Of a stretch of DNA of 39,527 bases, positions 7,610 through 12,907 are shown in pieces; position 1 is the stretch's first letter, and each line of letters opens with the position of its first letter. The position numbers were made by a program, and so were the translations under genes. The notes below the pieces were generated by a model that did no database searches, was not told the DNA's origin, and worked only from the letters and a program-made list of their open reading frames with translations. Source of the stretch: Chroococcidiopsidaceae cyanobacterium CP_BM_ER_R8_30 (GTDB lineage Bacteria > Cyanobacteriota > Cyanobacteriia > Cyanobacteriales > Chroococcidiopsidaceae). Where the stretch lies: contig JAFASY010000050.1 in NCBI GenBank assembly GCA_019244235.1, positions 1-39,527 on the forward strand, in the 5' to 3' direction.

Positions 7610-10600
7610 TCAAGACTCAACTGCACCTAGCGCTTTTAATGTTGCTTTCTGAGCTTCTGTTAAACCAGTTGAACCAGTGATATTCATACCTTCATAGGGT
7701 CTTTCGATGCTTAGTGTTTTGATACATTCACCTGTCTCGATCTCCCAAAACCGTATTGTCTGGTCGTCACTACCACTAACAATAACTTGCTTCAATTCTT
7801 GGGATTTATGGCGTAGGCGGGTGAAGGCAACTGAAAGCACCCAGCTTGTATGTCCACGCAATACTCTTAAAGCAAGACCTGTGTCTGTATCCCACACCCG
7901 CACTGTTTGGTCCATACTAGCGGTGGCTAAAGTATTACCATTTGGACTATAAGCAACCGAGGCAACCCAATTAGTATGCCCAGGAAGAATTTTACTGCAC
8001 TTACCATCTGAGACATCCCAAATTCTCACTGTCTGGTCGGCACTAGCGCTGGCTAGGTTTCGACCATCTGGGCTAAAAGCGATACACCACACCCAATGAA
8101 CATGTCCCTGTAGAACTTTGAGGCATTCACCAGTGCTAACATCCCAAAGCCTAATCGTTCGGTCAGCACCACAGCTAGCTAAAATCTCACCATCTGGGCT
8201 GTAAGCAACTGAAAGCACAAAACTGCTGTGTCCTAGTAGAACTTTGCAGTATTCACCAGTATTGATATTCCAGACTCTTACCGCTTGGTCTACACTGGCA
8301 ACCCCTACAGTAGTACCTTGTGGATTGTAGGTAATCGCAACGACCATGTTGGCGTGTCCCTTAAAGCTTCTTAAGCATTTACCATTGGAGACATCCCAGA
8401 TCTTAACTAGTAGGTCTGCACCTCCACTGGCTACAGTTTTCCCATCAGGACTGTAAGCAACGCCCCTGACCCAACTCGTATGCCCTTCAATAGTTCTCAA
8501 GCACTTACCATCTGAAACATTCCAGAGTCTTACCATCCGGTCTGTACTACCGCTGACAAGAGTTTCACCATCAGGGCTGATAGCAATAGAACACACCCCA
8601 CTACTGTATCCCTGAAAGGTTTTCAGACAGCTACCATCCGAGATATCCCAGACTTTTAGAGTTTGGTCTTCATCACTAGCAATTAGAGTATGATCTTGAG
8701 GGCTAAAGACAAGAGACCGAATCTCTCTACTATGTCCCTGTAAAGTTCTAACTTGCTGACCTGTACTGATATCCCACAGCTTTATTGTTCGATCAGAGCC
8801 ACCAATAGCTAGAATTTGATGGTGGGAACTGAAGGCAACAGGCCATGCCAACAAACTTTTTTTTCCGCTTAATATTGGTAACGTTTTCAAGCATTCACCC
8901 GTCTTAACGTTCCACAGTTTCACGGTTTGGTCTTCACTGGCACTGACTAGAGTCTTACTATCAGCACTAAAACTCACAAAAAAGACCGTCTCTTTATGTC
9001 CCTGCAAGGTTTTCAGACAATTACCAGTATTAATATCCCATAGTTTTATTGTTCGATCAGCACCACTGCTAACTAGGGTCTTGCCTTGTGGACTACAGGC
9101 AACAGACAATACCCAACTGCTGTGTCCCTGTAGAGTTTGATGGCACCTACCATCTGAGAGAGCCCACAGTTTTACGGTTCCATCTTCACCACCACTGACA
9201 AGAGTATTACCTTGCACATCACAGGCAACAGACAACACTACACCTATATGTCCCTGTAGAGTTTGGCGACAGCTACCATCTGAGAGAGCCCACAGTTTTA
9301 TGGTTCCGTCTTCACCACCACTAACGAGGGTATCACCTTGAAAACCAAAGGTAACAGCACGAGACCAACCCAAATGTCCATCCCAAACTAACAGTTGTTG
9401 TCCATCTGCAACTCGCCAAAGGCGAATCTTACTATGAGTATCAAATGTAGCTAGAAGTCTTCCATCTCGGCTAGCTGCCATGGCAAAAATGTAGCTAAAG
9501 TTCTCAGTAAAAATAGATTTCGCGAGATCGGAACCAGAGAAATTACAGAAATGTAAATCTAATCCTCGTAAGTCAGCCTGCCAAACCGTCAACATAGAAA
9601 AATCACGACCGCTTAAACCTATTTGCAACTGGCGCATTAGATTAAGAATATTACCAGCAGCATAGCCAGTTTCAAGGGGCGGTTTACCTTGTAAAAAGGA
9701 TAAGGTTTGCATTAGCTGCTCGTCAAGTTTATTGACGTTACCAAACACATGCAGTAGTTGTTTAATAATTGGCTTAGCAATTAAATTAATTTGAACATTT
9801 CTAATATAGTCTTTGACTTGGGCTTTAATCAAAGCATGTTTTTTGAGAAATGAGATTCTCTGACTAACAGTTTCTTCACAAACCTGCTCTATTACTAAAT
9901 TAGTAATATACCCTATAAGTACGGGATGTAATGTAAAAAGATCGGCTCTCTTCTCAATTAGCGATCGCCGTTTTAGAGATTCTAATGCCTCCAATAGCTG
10001 AAAAGATGCTATTGGTGATAAAAGATCTGATTTAATTTCTGCGATTGTAATAGGTTCACGATTAATAGCTAACCAGTGCATTATCTCAGCTTCCAACAAG
10101 GATAATCGAGCGTATTGCTGAGAGAGAAGAACTCTAATATCACCAAAGACTGCCGTTTGCTCTAATAAAAACTTAGAAATACTACAGTTGAACAAATCTC
10201 GGATTGTTGTGGAAACGATTTTCAAGGCAAGAGGATTTCCTGCATAATACTGAATGAGTTTTTCCCAGTCATCTTCCAAGCCAGAAAAGTTGCCTTTGCC
10301 TCGAAAAAATTCTTGTCCATCAGCTGTCGATAAACCTGATAACTGCAGGGATCGAATGGGGAAAGTTTTGCCTTCAAGGACTGCCACTTCTTTAGGCTTT
10401 TCTCGACTAGTTATTACCAAACAACTATTGTGACGCGATTCTCCAATTCGCTTGAAGAGTTCGCCATATCCCTCATATTCCTCAAGATAATATCCTGCCT
10501 GAAAATCATGGACTTCAGATGAATCATGACTACATAAAATAGTCTCCACATTGTCAAGTACAAGTAGGCAGCGAGATTTTTTTAGATAATCTAGCAGTTG

Positions 10601-11206
10601 CGATATGTTTGCACTTACCTCTCCAGATAACTCTGTTTCCTGCTGGTTGGATAGAAATTGAATCAAGCTAGAGAGAAGAGCTTCAATGGATGGAGCATTA
10701 TGAAGCGATCTCCAGATGATGTACTCAAATTGCGGCTGAACTTGCTCTGCTAACTTCACAGATAAAGCCGTTTTACCAATGCCACCAATTCCCAGAATTG
10801 CTACTAATCTACAGCGCTCTTGAACGATCCATTTCTCTAAAGCAGTCAGCTCAGCAGAGCGTCCGTAGAAAATTGAAGTGTCAATTGCTTCACCCCAATC
10901 TTGGTGACAAACGGTTGTTGATTGCAGTTTCCTTAAGGGAGTATAGGATCGCGTTTGCCAACGATTTATTGCTGAACGCAAGTTATTTTTTGTAACTCTC
11001 TCGCCCAAAGCCTCCGAGAGTAGCTTCCAAAGCTGGAAGCCAACATACTTAACGTAGCCATCATCATATCCCAAACTTTGAGCCATCTCTGGGTAACTCT
11101 TTCGTTCCCAAGATTGAAGAAAAACCGTTTTTTGTAAATCATTCAAAGACTCTTTGCCAAGAATCGCATCTATAGTAGCGAAGGCTTCTTCAACGTCATC
11201 TGTCAC
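7610..11206 (-). CDS. STAND NTPase with N-terminal helix-turn-helix-like region and 14 WD40 repeats
   Basis: This is a 1198-residue signalling ATPase. Residues 1-80 form a helical region resembling the helix-turn-helix modules at the front of many cyanobacterial NB-ARC proteins. The NB-ARC/STAND core has P-loop GIGGIGKT (139-146), Walker B LLVLDNVE (214-221) and the GNPLAL motif (323-328). From about residue 570 there are 14 WD40 units, each ending in forms such as [10 protein letters not shown], enough for two seven-bladed propellers. Such proteins act as ligand-sensing switches; in bacteria many serve in conflict, cell-death or antiphage roles, but no effector enzyme domain is visible here. 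It is a single gene, divergent from the psbA region. Two adjacent repeats are nearly identical at DNA level, showing recent repeat turnover. Confidence 0.9.
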
Positions 11207-11285: not shown

Positions 11286-11451
11286 TATACTAACCTTTAA
11301 TAACAGACAAATTTAAGCAAATGTCCTACTGTTAAGTTAGGTTGCTTCAAAAGGCGACTACTGACAGCTAAATTGTAATAGATGAAGTAGCTGTTATTGT
11401 TCTAATGATTGCTTAATAATAAAAGCGCTCTTATTAGAGGAGCGCTTTTTC
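11286..11451 (+). other. psbA-like leader joined to a terminator with no gene between
   Basis: This stretch resembles the psbA control region without psbA. Bases 11291-11372 align with the psbA leader at 11615-11700: both share TAATAAC(A/T)GACAAA, TGTTAA, GTTGCTT and AAAAGGC in the same order. About 50 bases later comes a terminator hairpin nearly identical to the one behind psbA. A possible -10 element TATACT lies at 11286-11291. It may be the scar of a deleted tandem psbA copy or may encode a short transcript of roughly 150 bases. In the rest of the 520-base gap (11207-11285 and 11452-11614) I see only A+T-rich DNA. Confidence 0.5.
11421..11451 (+). terminator. intrinsic terminator of the psbA-like leader cassette
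   Basis: The stem AAAAGCGCTC / GGAGCGCTTTTT encloses a loop of about nine bases and ends in a T-run. It matches the hairpin behind psbA (12879-12907) in stem, loop core TTATTA and T-tract. Confidence 0.75.
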
Positions 11452-11614
11452 TGTGTTCTTGATGTAATCTTAAAAAACTTTAATACTATTTTGTATAATT
11501 ACTGCAGCATTTAGTCTGCTATAACTATTTCCTAAAAAGACTTTCATGATCCAAAGCAGTATTAGGAAATTTAACGCAAAAATAACTTTTTAGCTAACTT
11601 ATTAACTTGAGTTT

Positions 11615-11726
11615 ATAACTTTTAATAACTGACAAAGCTGAATGCCTCTTTTATTGTTAACTTATGTTGCTTTATCAAAAGGCAACAACCTGATAGTCAA
11701 CATGTAACAGTGCAATCATTCAAATT
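11615..11726 (+). promoter_or_regulatory. psbA leader with conserved hairpin
   Basis: Upstream of psbA, GTTGCTTT and AAAGGCAAC (11666-11686) form a hairpin with a short loop. The homologous cassette at 11341-11358 keeps the pairing despite changes (GTTGCTT / AAGGCGAC, with an A-to-G change giving a G-U pair). Conservation of pairing supports a structured 5' untranslated region, as known for light-regulated psbA messages. TATAAC at 11614-11619 is a plausible but weak -10 element; I cannot place a good -35. No strong Shine-Dalgarno sequence precedes the ATG, as is common for psbA. Confidence 0.5.
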
Positions 11727-12824
11727 ATGACAACAACCATACAGAGACGCGAAAGCACATCTTTGTGGGAACAGTTCTGCGAGTGGGTAACATCCACCGA
11801 CAACCGCCTGTACATCGGCTGGTTCGGCGTATTGATGATCCCTACATTGCTAGCTGCCACAACCTGCTTCATCATCGCCTTCGTTGCAGCACCCCCAGTA
11901 GACATAGACGGCATCAGAGAGCCAGTAGCAGGTTCACTCCTGTACGGCAACAACATCATCACCGGAGCCGTAGTGCCATCATCCAACGCCATTGGTCTAC
12001 ACTTCTACCCGATCTGGGAAGCAGCCAGCCTAGACGAGTGGTTGTACAACGGTGGTCCCTACCAGCTAGTAGTATTCCACTTTTTGATTGGCATATTCTG
12101 CTACATGGGAAGGGAGTGGGAACTCAGCTACCGCCTAGGAATGCGTCCATGGATAGCAGTAGCATACAGCGCGCCAGTAGCAGCAGCGACAGCAGTATTC
12201 CTAATCTACCCACTGGGACAAGGGTCATTCAGTGATGGTATGCCCCTGGGAATCTCTGGAACATTCAACTTCATGTTCGTATTCCAAGCGGAGCACAACA
12301 TCCTGATGCACCCATTCCACCAGTTGGGAGTAGCAGGAGTATTTGGCGGAGCGCTATTCAGTGCCATGCACGGTTCATTGGTCACCTCCTCATTGGTTCG
12401 CGAGACCACAGAGAGCGAGAGCCAGAACTACGGATACAAGTTTGGGCAAGAGGAAGAGACCTACAACATCGTAGCCGCGCACGGTTATTTCGGTCGCTTA
12501 GTTGGACGGACAAACGAGGTAATCTTGGGAACCTACGCAAACAGCCGTACCTTACACTTCTTCCTAGCAGCTTGGCCAGTAGTGGGAATTTGGTTCACAG
12601 CCTTGGGCATTAGCACCATGGCATTCAACCTGAACGGATTCAACTTCAACCAGTCTGTCATTGACTCTCAAGGGCGCGTAATTAGCACCTGGGCAGACGT
12701 ACTTAACCGCGCCAATCTAGGAATGGAAGTGATGCACGAGCGCAACGCGCACAACTTCCCACTCGATCTCGCTGCGGGTGAAGTTATGCCGATTACTCTA
12801 TCTGCTCCTGCCATTCACAGCTAA
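11727..12824 (+). CDS. psbA: photosystem II D1 protein with an altered QB-site loop
   Basis: D1 is the thylakoid reaction-centre subunit that carries P680, TyrZ, the Mn4CaO5 ligands and the QB plastoquinone site. The protein has 365 residues against the usual 360. Donor-side residues are intact: Asp170 and Glu189, Tyr161, His190 and His198, and the C-terminal ligand series in [14 protein letters not shown]. Position 130 is Glu, as in high-light D1 forms, and Gly80, Phe158 and Thr286-equivalent are the standard residues rather than the low-oxygen D1' set. After Leu258 the usual loop IFQYASFNNSR is replaced by [16 protein letters not shown], so the Ser264-Phe265 pair that holds QB is missing. 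His215 and the His272 equivalent (His277) remain. A processed C-terminal tail follows Ala344-equivalent. It is probably one of several psbA genes in this genome. Confidence 0.93.
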
Positions 12825-12878: not shown

Positions 12879-12907
12879 AGCGCTCCTTATTAATAGGAGC
12901 GCTTTTT
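12879..12907 (+). terminator. psbA terminator
   Basis: AGCGCTCC and GGAGCGCT pair around a TTATTAATA-type loop and are followed by five T. It lies 55 bases after the psbA stop and touches the stop codon of the convergent gene. On the minus strand the same hairpin could also terminate that gene. Confidence 0.85.

What the first reader, a model, noticed from the sequence alone, without database searches (positions are those of the whole stretch)
12501..12545. D1 protein with a rebuilt QB-site loop lacking Ser264-Phe265
The DE-loop segment after Leu258 reads [16 protein letters not shown] instead of the nearly invariant IFQYASFNNSR, a net gain of five residues. Ser264 and Phe265, which bind the QB head group and most PSII herbicides, have no counterpart, while all Mn-cluster, TyrZ, P680 and non-heme-iron ligands I can check are intact. 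Known atypical D1 forms (ChlF-type, rogue/sentinel, low-oxygen D1') differ mainly elsewhere. This combination of intact donor side and altered acceptor side suggests a PSII variant with changed quinone exchange, redox poise or herbicide response. The reading frame is continuous on both sides, so a simple sequencing slip is unlikely.
Basis: partly seen in the sequence, partly recalled or inferred. Interest (0 to 1): 0.85.

Follow-up and report, generated by a model that had tools for sequence, protein, structure and literature searches.

The report
Regulated D1 with rebuilt QB pocket
This cyanobacterial gene makes a water-splitting photosystem II core protein whose quinone-binding pocket has been rebuilt, and the same version recurs in scattered cyanobacteria, usually with a chemical-sensor-like switch beside it, as if made on demand against natural herbicide-like poisons.

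Summary
The window psbA (11727-12824) reads [16 protein letters not shown] where the genome's other complete copies have 11 residues (QYASF type): five more residues, Ser264 and Phe265 gone, every donor-side, iron, bicarbonate and His252 residue tested kept. It is no error: 17 of 18 hits of a length-based scan of 84,980 species' genomes have exactly +5 and the same motif GRTNE-xx-LGxxANSR, with free synonymous variation, inside G4-type D1. I found no description of the class in the literature I could search. In 17 of 21 loop genes a divergent TetR regulator sits upstream (1 of 46 non-loop D1s), with a palindrome found almost only at this promoter. The window and three others instead have a divergent NB-ARC/WD40 STAND protein and TAACT repeats; in the window their core occurs once in 5.5 Mb and overlaps a promoter-like site. 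Paralogous TetRs often adjoin Rieske or flavin-oxygenase-like genes. Best reading (0.45): a substitute D1 induced by a chemical, probably a QB-site inhibitor, so that photosystem II keeps working. Regulation is inferred from sequence; ligand and resistance are untested; AlphaFold models were unusable.

The parts
11727..12824 (+). psbA encoding the loop-type D1 (365 aa)
   Evidence: ORF; TIGR01151 psbA 770 bits against a cut-off of 596; best PDB match 6wj6_A, aligned over residues 1-364 with a 5-residue gap at the loop
12501..12548 (+). rebuilt QB-niche segment, codons 259-274, [16 protein letters not shown]
   Evidence: recurs in 17 of 18 loci
11583..11630 (+). TAACT direct-repeat array (starts 11583, 11595, 11603, 11616, 11626), proposed STAND-activator site
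   Evidence: only cluster of 4 or more TAAC[TC] in 45 nt in the window; 0 of 2000 Markov resamples of the upstream region reach it; TAACY-N8-TAACT-N5-TAACT occurs once in the 5.54-Mb genome, at 11603-11630; a closely similar array in L013, L022, L027 (the stricter pattern of that call does not match the window, whose spacing differs)
11629..11657 (+). promoter-like CTGACA-17-TATTGT whose -35 box overlaps the last repeat
   Evidence: as a consensus match no commoner than in shuffles (3 found, mean 2.7), of interest only by its place
7610..11206 (-). divergent STAND protein: N-terminal region, NB-ARC ATPase, WD40 propeller (1198 aa); proposed regulator of psbA
   Evidence: NB-ARC 1.8e-12, WD40; relatives divergent upstream of loop psbA in L013, L022, L027, 55-73% identical over 426-454 aa among the four
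12879..12903 (+). terminator-like hairpin after psbA
   Evidence: 2 found in the stretch, mean 1.3 in shuffles

Best explanation
This is a conserved minor D1 isoform ('loop-D1') of the water-oxidising G4 type. Residues 259-266 of its QB pocket, including Ser264 and Phe265, are replaced by a different 13-residue segment centred on G-R-T-N-E. It appears to be the main or only target of a dedicated one-component regulator: in the window a STAND (NB-ARC/WD40) protein acting through TAACT repeats that end on the -35 box (activator-like), in most other holders a TetR repressor acting through palindromes on the promoter. Proposed working: the cell normally uses its standard D1 copies. When the regulator binds its signal, most likely an aromatic or quinone-like compound that blocks the normal QB pocket (an allelochemical or herbicide-like natural product), loop-D1 is made. 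Because D1 turns over fast (recalled), photosystem II is refitted with a pocket the inhibitor fits poorly; plastoquinone still binds His215 and is protonated through His252 with new partners from the GRTNE segment. Shown: the sequence class, its selection, the donor-side residues, the linked regulators and candidate operators. Inferred: regulation by these proteins, expression on demand, the ligand, resistance, and the protonation route.
For: Class and selection: 17 of 18 loci of a length-based scan have the same +5 loop; 21 unique full-length proteins keep every Mn, TyrZ, P680, iron, bicarbonate and His252 residue tested; synonymous codons vary freely. In the window, gene conversion from a standard copy is suggested up to the loop (five 150-nt blocks 96.7-98.7% identical to L005) and not beyond it (90.0 then 76.7%). 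Regulators: TetR divergent in 17 of 21 loop genes against 1 of 46 non-loop D1s (Fisher 3e-11, rows not independent); the other 4 of 21 have the STAND protein. Apart from the regulator, neighbours shared by three or more loci (14 largest clusters printed) are those of the five Chroococcidiopsidaceae-type or the three Nodosilinea-type loci. Operators: 18 distinct places in 15 genomes match the palindrome at <=2 mismatches, 17 of them at loop psbA, against 14 for the reversed control (the motif was read from these promoters, so the informative part is the single match elsewhere). STAND array: once in the own genome; of 8 close STAND homologues reported for 388 genomes (at most 4 candidates scored per genome) 3 have loop psbA and array, 5 have neither in the stretch held, 2 of these 5 cut by a contig end. 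Chemical sensing: of 30 TetR-subfamily loci taken, 12 adjoin a D1 gene (11 loop-type, 1 own D170E-type), 6 a divergent Rieske-type and 5 a divergent FAD_binding_3 gene, a sixth FAD case being own L103; 7 had no identified partner (Pfam checked on 5 of the 12 oxygenase-like proteins). In two loop loci (L025, Leptolyngbya sp. PCC 6406, and L125) the same Rieske-type gene lies on the far side of the TetR. Pocket chemistry: Ser264 and Asn266 are herbicide-resistance positions (PMC11275581, passages); of the 21 loop proteins 5 also have Leu at 274 and 6 others Met at 275 with Ile at 211, while 30 of 30 standard copies are F211/F274/L275; 274 and 275 are on the same list of eight resistance positions, and 211, 274 and 275 line the QB pocket (PMC8398153, passages).
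Against: No expression, binding or inhibitor data. The other listed resistance positions 218, 219, 251 and 255 are unchanged in all 21. TetR and STAND proteins can sense internal metabolites; the nearest named TetR model is RutR (pyrimidines), far below cut-off. An oxygenase-like gene beside loop psbA was seen only in L025 among the loop loci and in L125; flanks are 1-7 kb. Two proteins of the wider class depart from the motif (L116 +4, L122 GRMNE). The tree does not recover the loop genes as one clade (2-3 changes; one clade not rejected, p-AU 0.123), so origin and spread are unsettled. The exact 3-unit array of L013, L022, L027 is not met in the window. Structure predictions of the window protein and of the standard control both failed (pLDDT 47 and 44).
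Confidence: 0.45

Rival explanations
1. A physiological acclimation isoform: the loop shifts the QB redox potential or quinone residence time for a condition such as low oxygen, over-reduced plastoquinone or shade, and the regulator senses an internal metabolite or redox signal.
For: The alternative D1s listed in PMC4582080 section 7 are condition-specific; holders have 3-15 PF00124 matches each (D1, D2 and fragments); the hydrogen bonds of the quinones are said to set their redox potential (PMC4030317 passages), so loss of Ser264/Phe265 should alter it. Window D1 is E130, the high-light type in PMC4582080, though many standard copies here are E130 too.
Against: The regulators belong to chemical-sensor-type families and many TetR siblings adjoin oxygenase-like genes. 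The extra changes confined to this class include QB-pocket positions 211, 274, 275. A redox tweak would hardly need the whole 259-266 segment rebuilt (inference).
Confidence: 0.3
2. A QB-impaired photosystem II: the inserted segment fills or blocks the pocket so that electrons stop at QA, giving a protective, non-exporting photosystem II made under stress.
For: The two head-group contacts Ser264 and Phe265 are missing; the residue at the 264 spacing is T, V or A.
Against: H215, H252, F255, M214, L218, L271, E244, Y246 unchanged in 21 of 21; a merely blocked site should not keep 11 of 16 segment residues invariant; water-oxidation ligands all kept.
Confidence: 0.13
3. Loop-D1 binds a different quinone or a modified plastoquinone, made in the same conditions.
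For: TetR siblings adjoin flavoprotein and Rieske genes of kinds that can hydroxylate aromatic rings (the chemistry is recalled); one such Rieske gene lies near loop psbA in L025 and L125.
Against: No such gene in the other loop loci (flanks 1-7 kb); no quinone-synthesis gene was recognised among the shared neighbours.
Confidence: 0.08
4. Assembly error, sequencing slip or decaying gene-conversion scar.
For: The genome is in 328 contigs and several psbA copies end contigs; the first two thirds are nearly identical to another copy.
Against: The same loop is present in independent genomes of several genera with synonymous divergence; the upstream array is unique and the 3' part distinct.
Confidence: 0.01

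Closest known systems
Standard G4 D1 (e.g. Synechocystis D1, PDB 6wj6/7n8o)
   Same: Best PDB match over nearly the full length, all donor-side residues tested, TIGR01151 above cut-off.
   Different: Five residues longer; 259-266 including Ser264-Phe265 replaced; linked regulator and candidate operator.
G2 'rogue' D1
   Same: Both lack Ser264: the 7 copies examined have A/M, G/F, A/F or G/S at 264/265; PMC4582080 section 7 notes changes near QB in rogue D1.
   Different: Those copies lose E189, E333 and D342 and carry E170; about one residue longer near H252, not five; separate starred clade.
ChlF-type (G1, 'super-rogue') D1
   Same: Altered QB side: both copies examined have Q at 252; one keeps S264/F265, the other has R264.
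   Different: Mn ligands lost, clade far away.
G3 low-oxygen D1'
   Same: Minor isoform of water-oxidising type.
   Different: The 4 copies I labelled G3 are A80/L158/A286 with normal IFQ(Y/H)ASFNNSR; the loop class is G80/F158 in 21 of 21 and T286 in 20 of 21. The three marker residues are recalled.
Herbicide-resistant psbA alleles of weeds, algae, cyanobacteria
   Same: Affected positions overlap: 264 and 266 in all, 274 in 5 and 275 in 6 of 21.
   Different: Those described are single substitutions; this is a rebuilt segment in a separately regulated extra copy.
Inducible target-replacement resistance (spare drug-insensitive target under a ligand-sensing regulator; recalled principle)
   Same: Spare target copy, altered binding site, linked TetR or STAND regulator.
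   Different: Target is a photosystem subunit; inducer and resistance untested.

Membership tests
Photosystem II D1 (psbA) | NCBIfam TIGR01151 above curated cut-off | tested here: met
   770 bits against 596
Water-oxidising D1 (G3/G4) | D170, E189, H332, E333, H337, D342, A344, Y161, H190 | tested here: met
   21 of 21 loop proteins
Standard G4 D1 | Ser264 and Phe265 in the QB niche, 11-residue loop of IFQYASFNNSR type | tested here: not met
   16 residues instead of 11; T, V or A at the 264 spacing, Ser in 0 of 21
Standard G4 D1 | Placement among G4 copies in a tree | tested here: met
   Loop rows fall among standard copies, outside the G1-, G2-, G3- and far-red-labelled groups; inner order weakly supported
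ChlF (G1) | Loss of Mn ligands | tested here: not met
   Ligands kept
ChlF (G1) | Location in a far-red (FaRLiP) gene cluster | tested here: inconclusive
   No such gene recognised by eye among the shared neighbours, but flanks are a few kb and only clusters of shared frames were looked at
Rogue/sentinel D1 (G2) | Loss of donor-side ligands | tested here: not met
   Ligands kept; outside the G2 clade
Low-oxygen D1' (G3) | A80, L158, A286 (recalled) | tested here: not met
   Window has G80, F158, T286
Far-red D1 | Grouping with the two D1 copies I labelled far-red (label mine, from sequence and nearby psbA/psbD hits) | tested here: not met
   Those two form a separate starred clade
D1INT | Diagnostic residues of Sheridan et al. 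2020 | not testable with these tools
   Paper not held
Inducible target-replacement resistance | Ligand-sensing-type regulator next to the spare target | tested here: met
   TetR 17 of 21, STAND 4 of 21
Inducible target-replacement resistance | Operator specific to that promoter | tested here: inconclusive
   Sequence is as expected (palindrome 17 of 18 places at loop psbA; TAACT core once in own genome), but binding was not tested
Inducible target-replacement resistance | Spare copy is less sensitive to the inducer | not testable with these tools
   Needs inhibitor assays

The most novel reading that the evidence does not exclude
Cyanobacteria hold a natural, inducible herbicide-resistant photosystem II: a spare D1 whose QB pocket is built without Ser264-Phe265 and carries a conserved R-T-N-E segment (an acidic residue possibly near the quinone, as purple-bacterial reaction centres have), switched on by TetR or STAND sensors of natural PSII inhibitors and passed among distant lineages as a regulator-psbA pair.
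Probability: 0.4. Interest if true: 0.88.

Novelty: new variant of a known kind. Interest (0 to 1): 0.74.

Why it matters
Ser264 and Phe265 offer the QB head group two of its hydrogen bonds (PMC4030317 passages) and are described as structurally conserved across the D1 groups compared in a 2025 survey (PMC12096807, parts 1-3 of 5). A water-oxidising class that lacks both suggests a second way to build the site. That makes QB binding and protonation directly testable in a lab strain, gives a route to natural PSII inhibitors (the regulators' ligands), and would be the first natural on-demand herbicide-resistance system in photosynthesis that I know of (recalled; none seen in the listings, which showed 20 of 197, 15 of 1,219, 8 of 8 and 12 of 13 papers).

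Tried and rejected
AlphaFold2 on the window D1 and on the own standard copy L001, 49-row alignments: mean pLDDT 46.8 and 44.3, pTM 0.30 and 0.28. Both unusable, so no fold search was run and nothing about loop shape is claimed.

Viral origin: the loop motif and the long-loop pattern gave 0 hits in viral contigs.

A single clade for all loop genes: not recovered, not rejected. Gene conversion could explain it; a tree on loop-distal DNA alone was not made.

Operator in the window: the TetR palindrome is absent from the window upstream region and from the own genome at 2 mismatches, so the own TetR paralogues are not proposed as regulators of the window gene.

Counts and dropped rows: the table leaves out partial D1s (L005, L006, L019; L028 is broken), D2s (L007, L098, L099), L045, repeats of the window (L011, L065) and duplicates; L009 and L010 did not enter the set. 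The 21 loop genes are the window, 16 of the 17 loop loci (L019 is cut) and 4 found by the motif itself. Not every psbA hit was fetched: 30 came as loci and 34 more regions were taken (two of these are D2, not used); fragments and some near-duplicates were left. L021's genome is not held, so one search covers 16 genomes for 17 loci. Two of the 46 non-loop copies had under 700 nt of upstream flank (419 and 492). TetR identity rests on Pfam for 2 of 17 and on a profile built from all 17 for the rest. One search reported 48 matches, of which 30 became the loci examined. The motif misses variants such as L122. The G651 match reads G-S-T-N-E and is likely chance.

Full report
OBSERVATION. The window psbA (11727-12824, +) is an uninterrupted 365-codon frame. 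Codons 259-274 (12501-12548) read [16 protein letters not shown]; the four other copies of the genome that cover this site have the usual 11-residue QYASF-type segment. Outside it the protein is ordinary: the best PDB match (6wj6_A) aligns over residues 1-364 with one 5-residue gap. The residues checked for the Mn cluster, TyrZ, P680, iron, bicarbonate and QB protonation (H252) are all kept.

A CONSERVED CLASS, NOT AN ERROR. A pattern blind to the insert's letters, asking for HGYFGRL and GIWF 1-10 residues further apart than normal, gave 18 loci in genomes of 84,980 species. 17 of 18 have exactly +5 and read [VI]GRTNE[IVL][IVL]LGxxANSR; the eighteenth, L028, is a broken gene. By record title the holders are mostly Leptolyngbya and Nodosilinea, with Adonisia, Halomicronema, Phormidium tenue, a Coleofasciculus MAG, Gloeocapsopsis crepidinum and unnamed filamentous strains. 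A motif search, blind to variants, finds it in 6 of 19 genomes of the window's family, 7 of 388 of its order and 3 of 386 in a phylum-wide draw, each count including the window's own genome and the last one likely chance match. In the 17 full-length proteins found without the motif, 11 of the 16 segment residues are invariant; over 21 genes synonymous codons vary freely, so the protein sequence is selected. In the window, five 150-nt blocks before the segment are 96.7-98.7% identical to the own copy L005, and the two blocks after it 90.0 and 76.7%: gene conversion seems to have run up to the segment and spared it.

PLACE AMONG D1s. With the loop columns left out, loop proteins lie among standard G4 copies and away from the G1-, G2-, G3- and far-red-labelled groups (group labels are mine, from diagnostic residues partly recalled). 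They are not recovered as one clade (one clade not rejected, p-AU 0.123); conversion would blur this. Against 30 standard copies the loop class differs clearly at 209 (A in 20 of 21 against 4 of 30) and 276 (A in 19 of 21 against 3 of 30), and less so at 7. In addition 211 (I in 6), 274 (L in 5) and 275 (M in 6) vary in the loop class but in none of the 30; 211I and 275M occur in the same six proteins and 274L in five others. 211, 274 and 275 line the QB niche (PMC8398153, passages) and 264, 266, 274, 275 are among eight resistance positions of weeds (PMC11275581, passages); of the other four, 218, 219, 251 and 255, none is changed.

THE SWITCH. In 17 of 21 loop genes a divergent TetR-family gene starts just upstream (PF00440 and TetR_C_29 shown for two of them; the rest by a profile of the 17). 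Apart from the regulator, neighbours shared by three or more loci (14 largest clusters printed) are those of the five Chroococcidiopsidaceae-type or the three Nodosilinea-type loci, so the pair, not a long syntenic block, is conserved. All 17 intergenic regions hold at least one match to the palindrome TTAACTAACnnGTTAGTTAA (at up to 4 mismatches of 18); 12 of 17 hold two or three around a TTGACA-N17/18-TAnnnT promoter, the other five hold one. Over 15 genomes 18 distinct places match within two mismatches: 17 at loop psbA, one elsewhere, against 14 for the reversed control; the own genome and G001 have none. As the motif was read from these promoters, the point is its near absence elsewhere.

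The window and L013, L022, L027 have no such TetR. All four have a divergent STAND protein (window 7610-11206, NB-ARC and WD40; 55-73% identical over 426-454 aa) and, upstream of psbA, a run of TAACT units (for three, spaced 13, 10-11, 10; for the window, spaced 12, 8, 13, 10). In the window the last unit (11626) overlaps the -35 box of the promoter-like CTGACA-17-TATTGT at 11629-11657, as expected for an activator. The core TAACY-N8-TAACT-N5-TAACT occurs once in 5.54 Mb, here. Of eight close STAND homologues reported for 388 genomes, three stand next to a loop psbA with the array and five have neither in the stretch held, two of these five being cut by a contig end (at most four candidates per genome were scored).

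WHAT THE REGULATORS MAY SENSE. Of 30 loci of the TetR subfamily (taken from 48 matches in 36 of 242 class genomes), 12 adjoin a D1 gene (11 loop-type, two of them variants: L116 +4, L122 GRMNE; 1 = own L004), 6 a divergent Rieske-type gene, 5 a divergent FAD_binding_3 gene, and 7 no partner I identified; a further FAD case is the own paralogue L103 (Pfam checked on five of these twelve oxygenase-like proteins). L103 also lies near a glyoxalase/bleomycin-resistance-superfamily gene. In two loop loci, L025 (Leptolyngbya sp. PCC 6406) and L125, the same Rieske-type gene lies on the far side of the TetR; it is absent from the other loop loci within their 1-7 kb flanks. These families commonly handle aromatic compounds (recalled), which suggests, and does not show, an aromatic or quinone-like ligand.

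HOW IT MOST LIKELY WORKS. Ser264 and Phe265 can bond a QB keto oxygen, and Ser264 via His252 is the supposed first proton route (PMC4030317 passages; PMC12096807). Replacing them while keeping His215, His252, Phe255 and the donor side points to a working photosystem II with a differently shaped pocket; ureas, triazines and triazinones are Ser264 binders (PMC8398153 passages). A spare, non-standard target under a dedicated chemical-sensor-type switch is the logic of inducible target-replacement resistance. Confidence 0.45; the main rival is a redox or physiological acclimation isoform (0.30).

KNOWN OR NEW. I found no description of a +5 loop class or of a TetR- or STAND-linked psbA in the listings or the texts opened (PMC12096807 parts 1-3 of 5; PMC4582080 section 7 and passages; passages of PMC9325196, PMC5061849, PMC4030317, PMC11275581, PMC8398153, PMC4793316). 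The 2025 AlphaFold survey of D1 (PMC12096807) calls the S264/F265 region structurally well conserved across its groups. The two phylogenetic surveys most likely to have met this class are not held. It is a new variant of D1, with a regulatory arrangement that I could not find reported.

Noticed in passing
L004 (own genome C237:4310-5209, -): Another odd D1 of this genome: D170E, E244D, F158L and a W260/H266-type QB loop, the other Mn ligands tested kept, with its own divergent TetR of the same subfamily and a related palindrome at 4 mismatches. Possibly a second regulated special-purpose D1.
   Followed up: partly
L103 (own genome C272), L111, L113, L114, L118, L124 and L117, L126, L131, L132, L134, L136: Paralogous TetRs of the same subfamily are divergent to FAD_binding_3 or Rieske-type genes, which may form a small cyanobacterial aromatic-response family.
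   Followed up: partly
L025 2264-3328 (-) and L125 3-611 (-): A Rieske-type gene of that same family lies near the TetR-loop psbA pair, so some genomes may couple target replacement with breakdown of the compound.
   Followed up: partly
L116 (D1 at 82-1176, -) and L122 (D1 at 180-1310, -): Variants of the loop class: HGFLSRLLGRTNEIIGAKANSR (+4, with changed flanking residues) and GRMNEVVLGTQANSR, both beside the TetR.
   Followed up: no
window 11421-11449 and 12879-12903: Two very similar hairpins (AGCGCTC...GAGCGCT) flank the psbA unit on both sides; may be terminators or a repeat that bounds a transferable cassette.
   Followed up: no
L016, L021, L024: In the three Nodosilinea-type loci the TetR-loop psbA pair lies beside rbcL/rbcS-like frames (identified by eye).
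   Followed up: no
own genome: L005, L006, L008, L009, L010: Several psbA/psbD copies end contigs, so the number of D1 genes in this genome is not settled.
   Followed up: no
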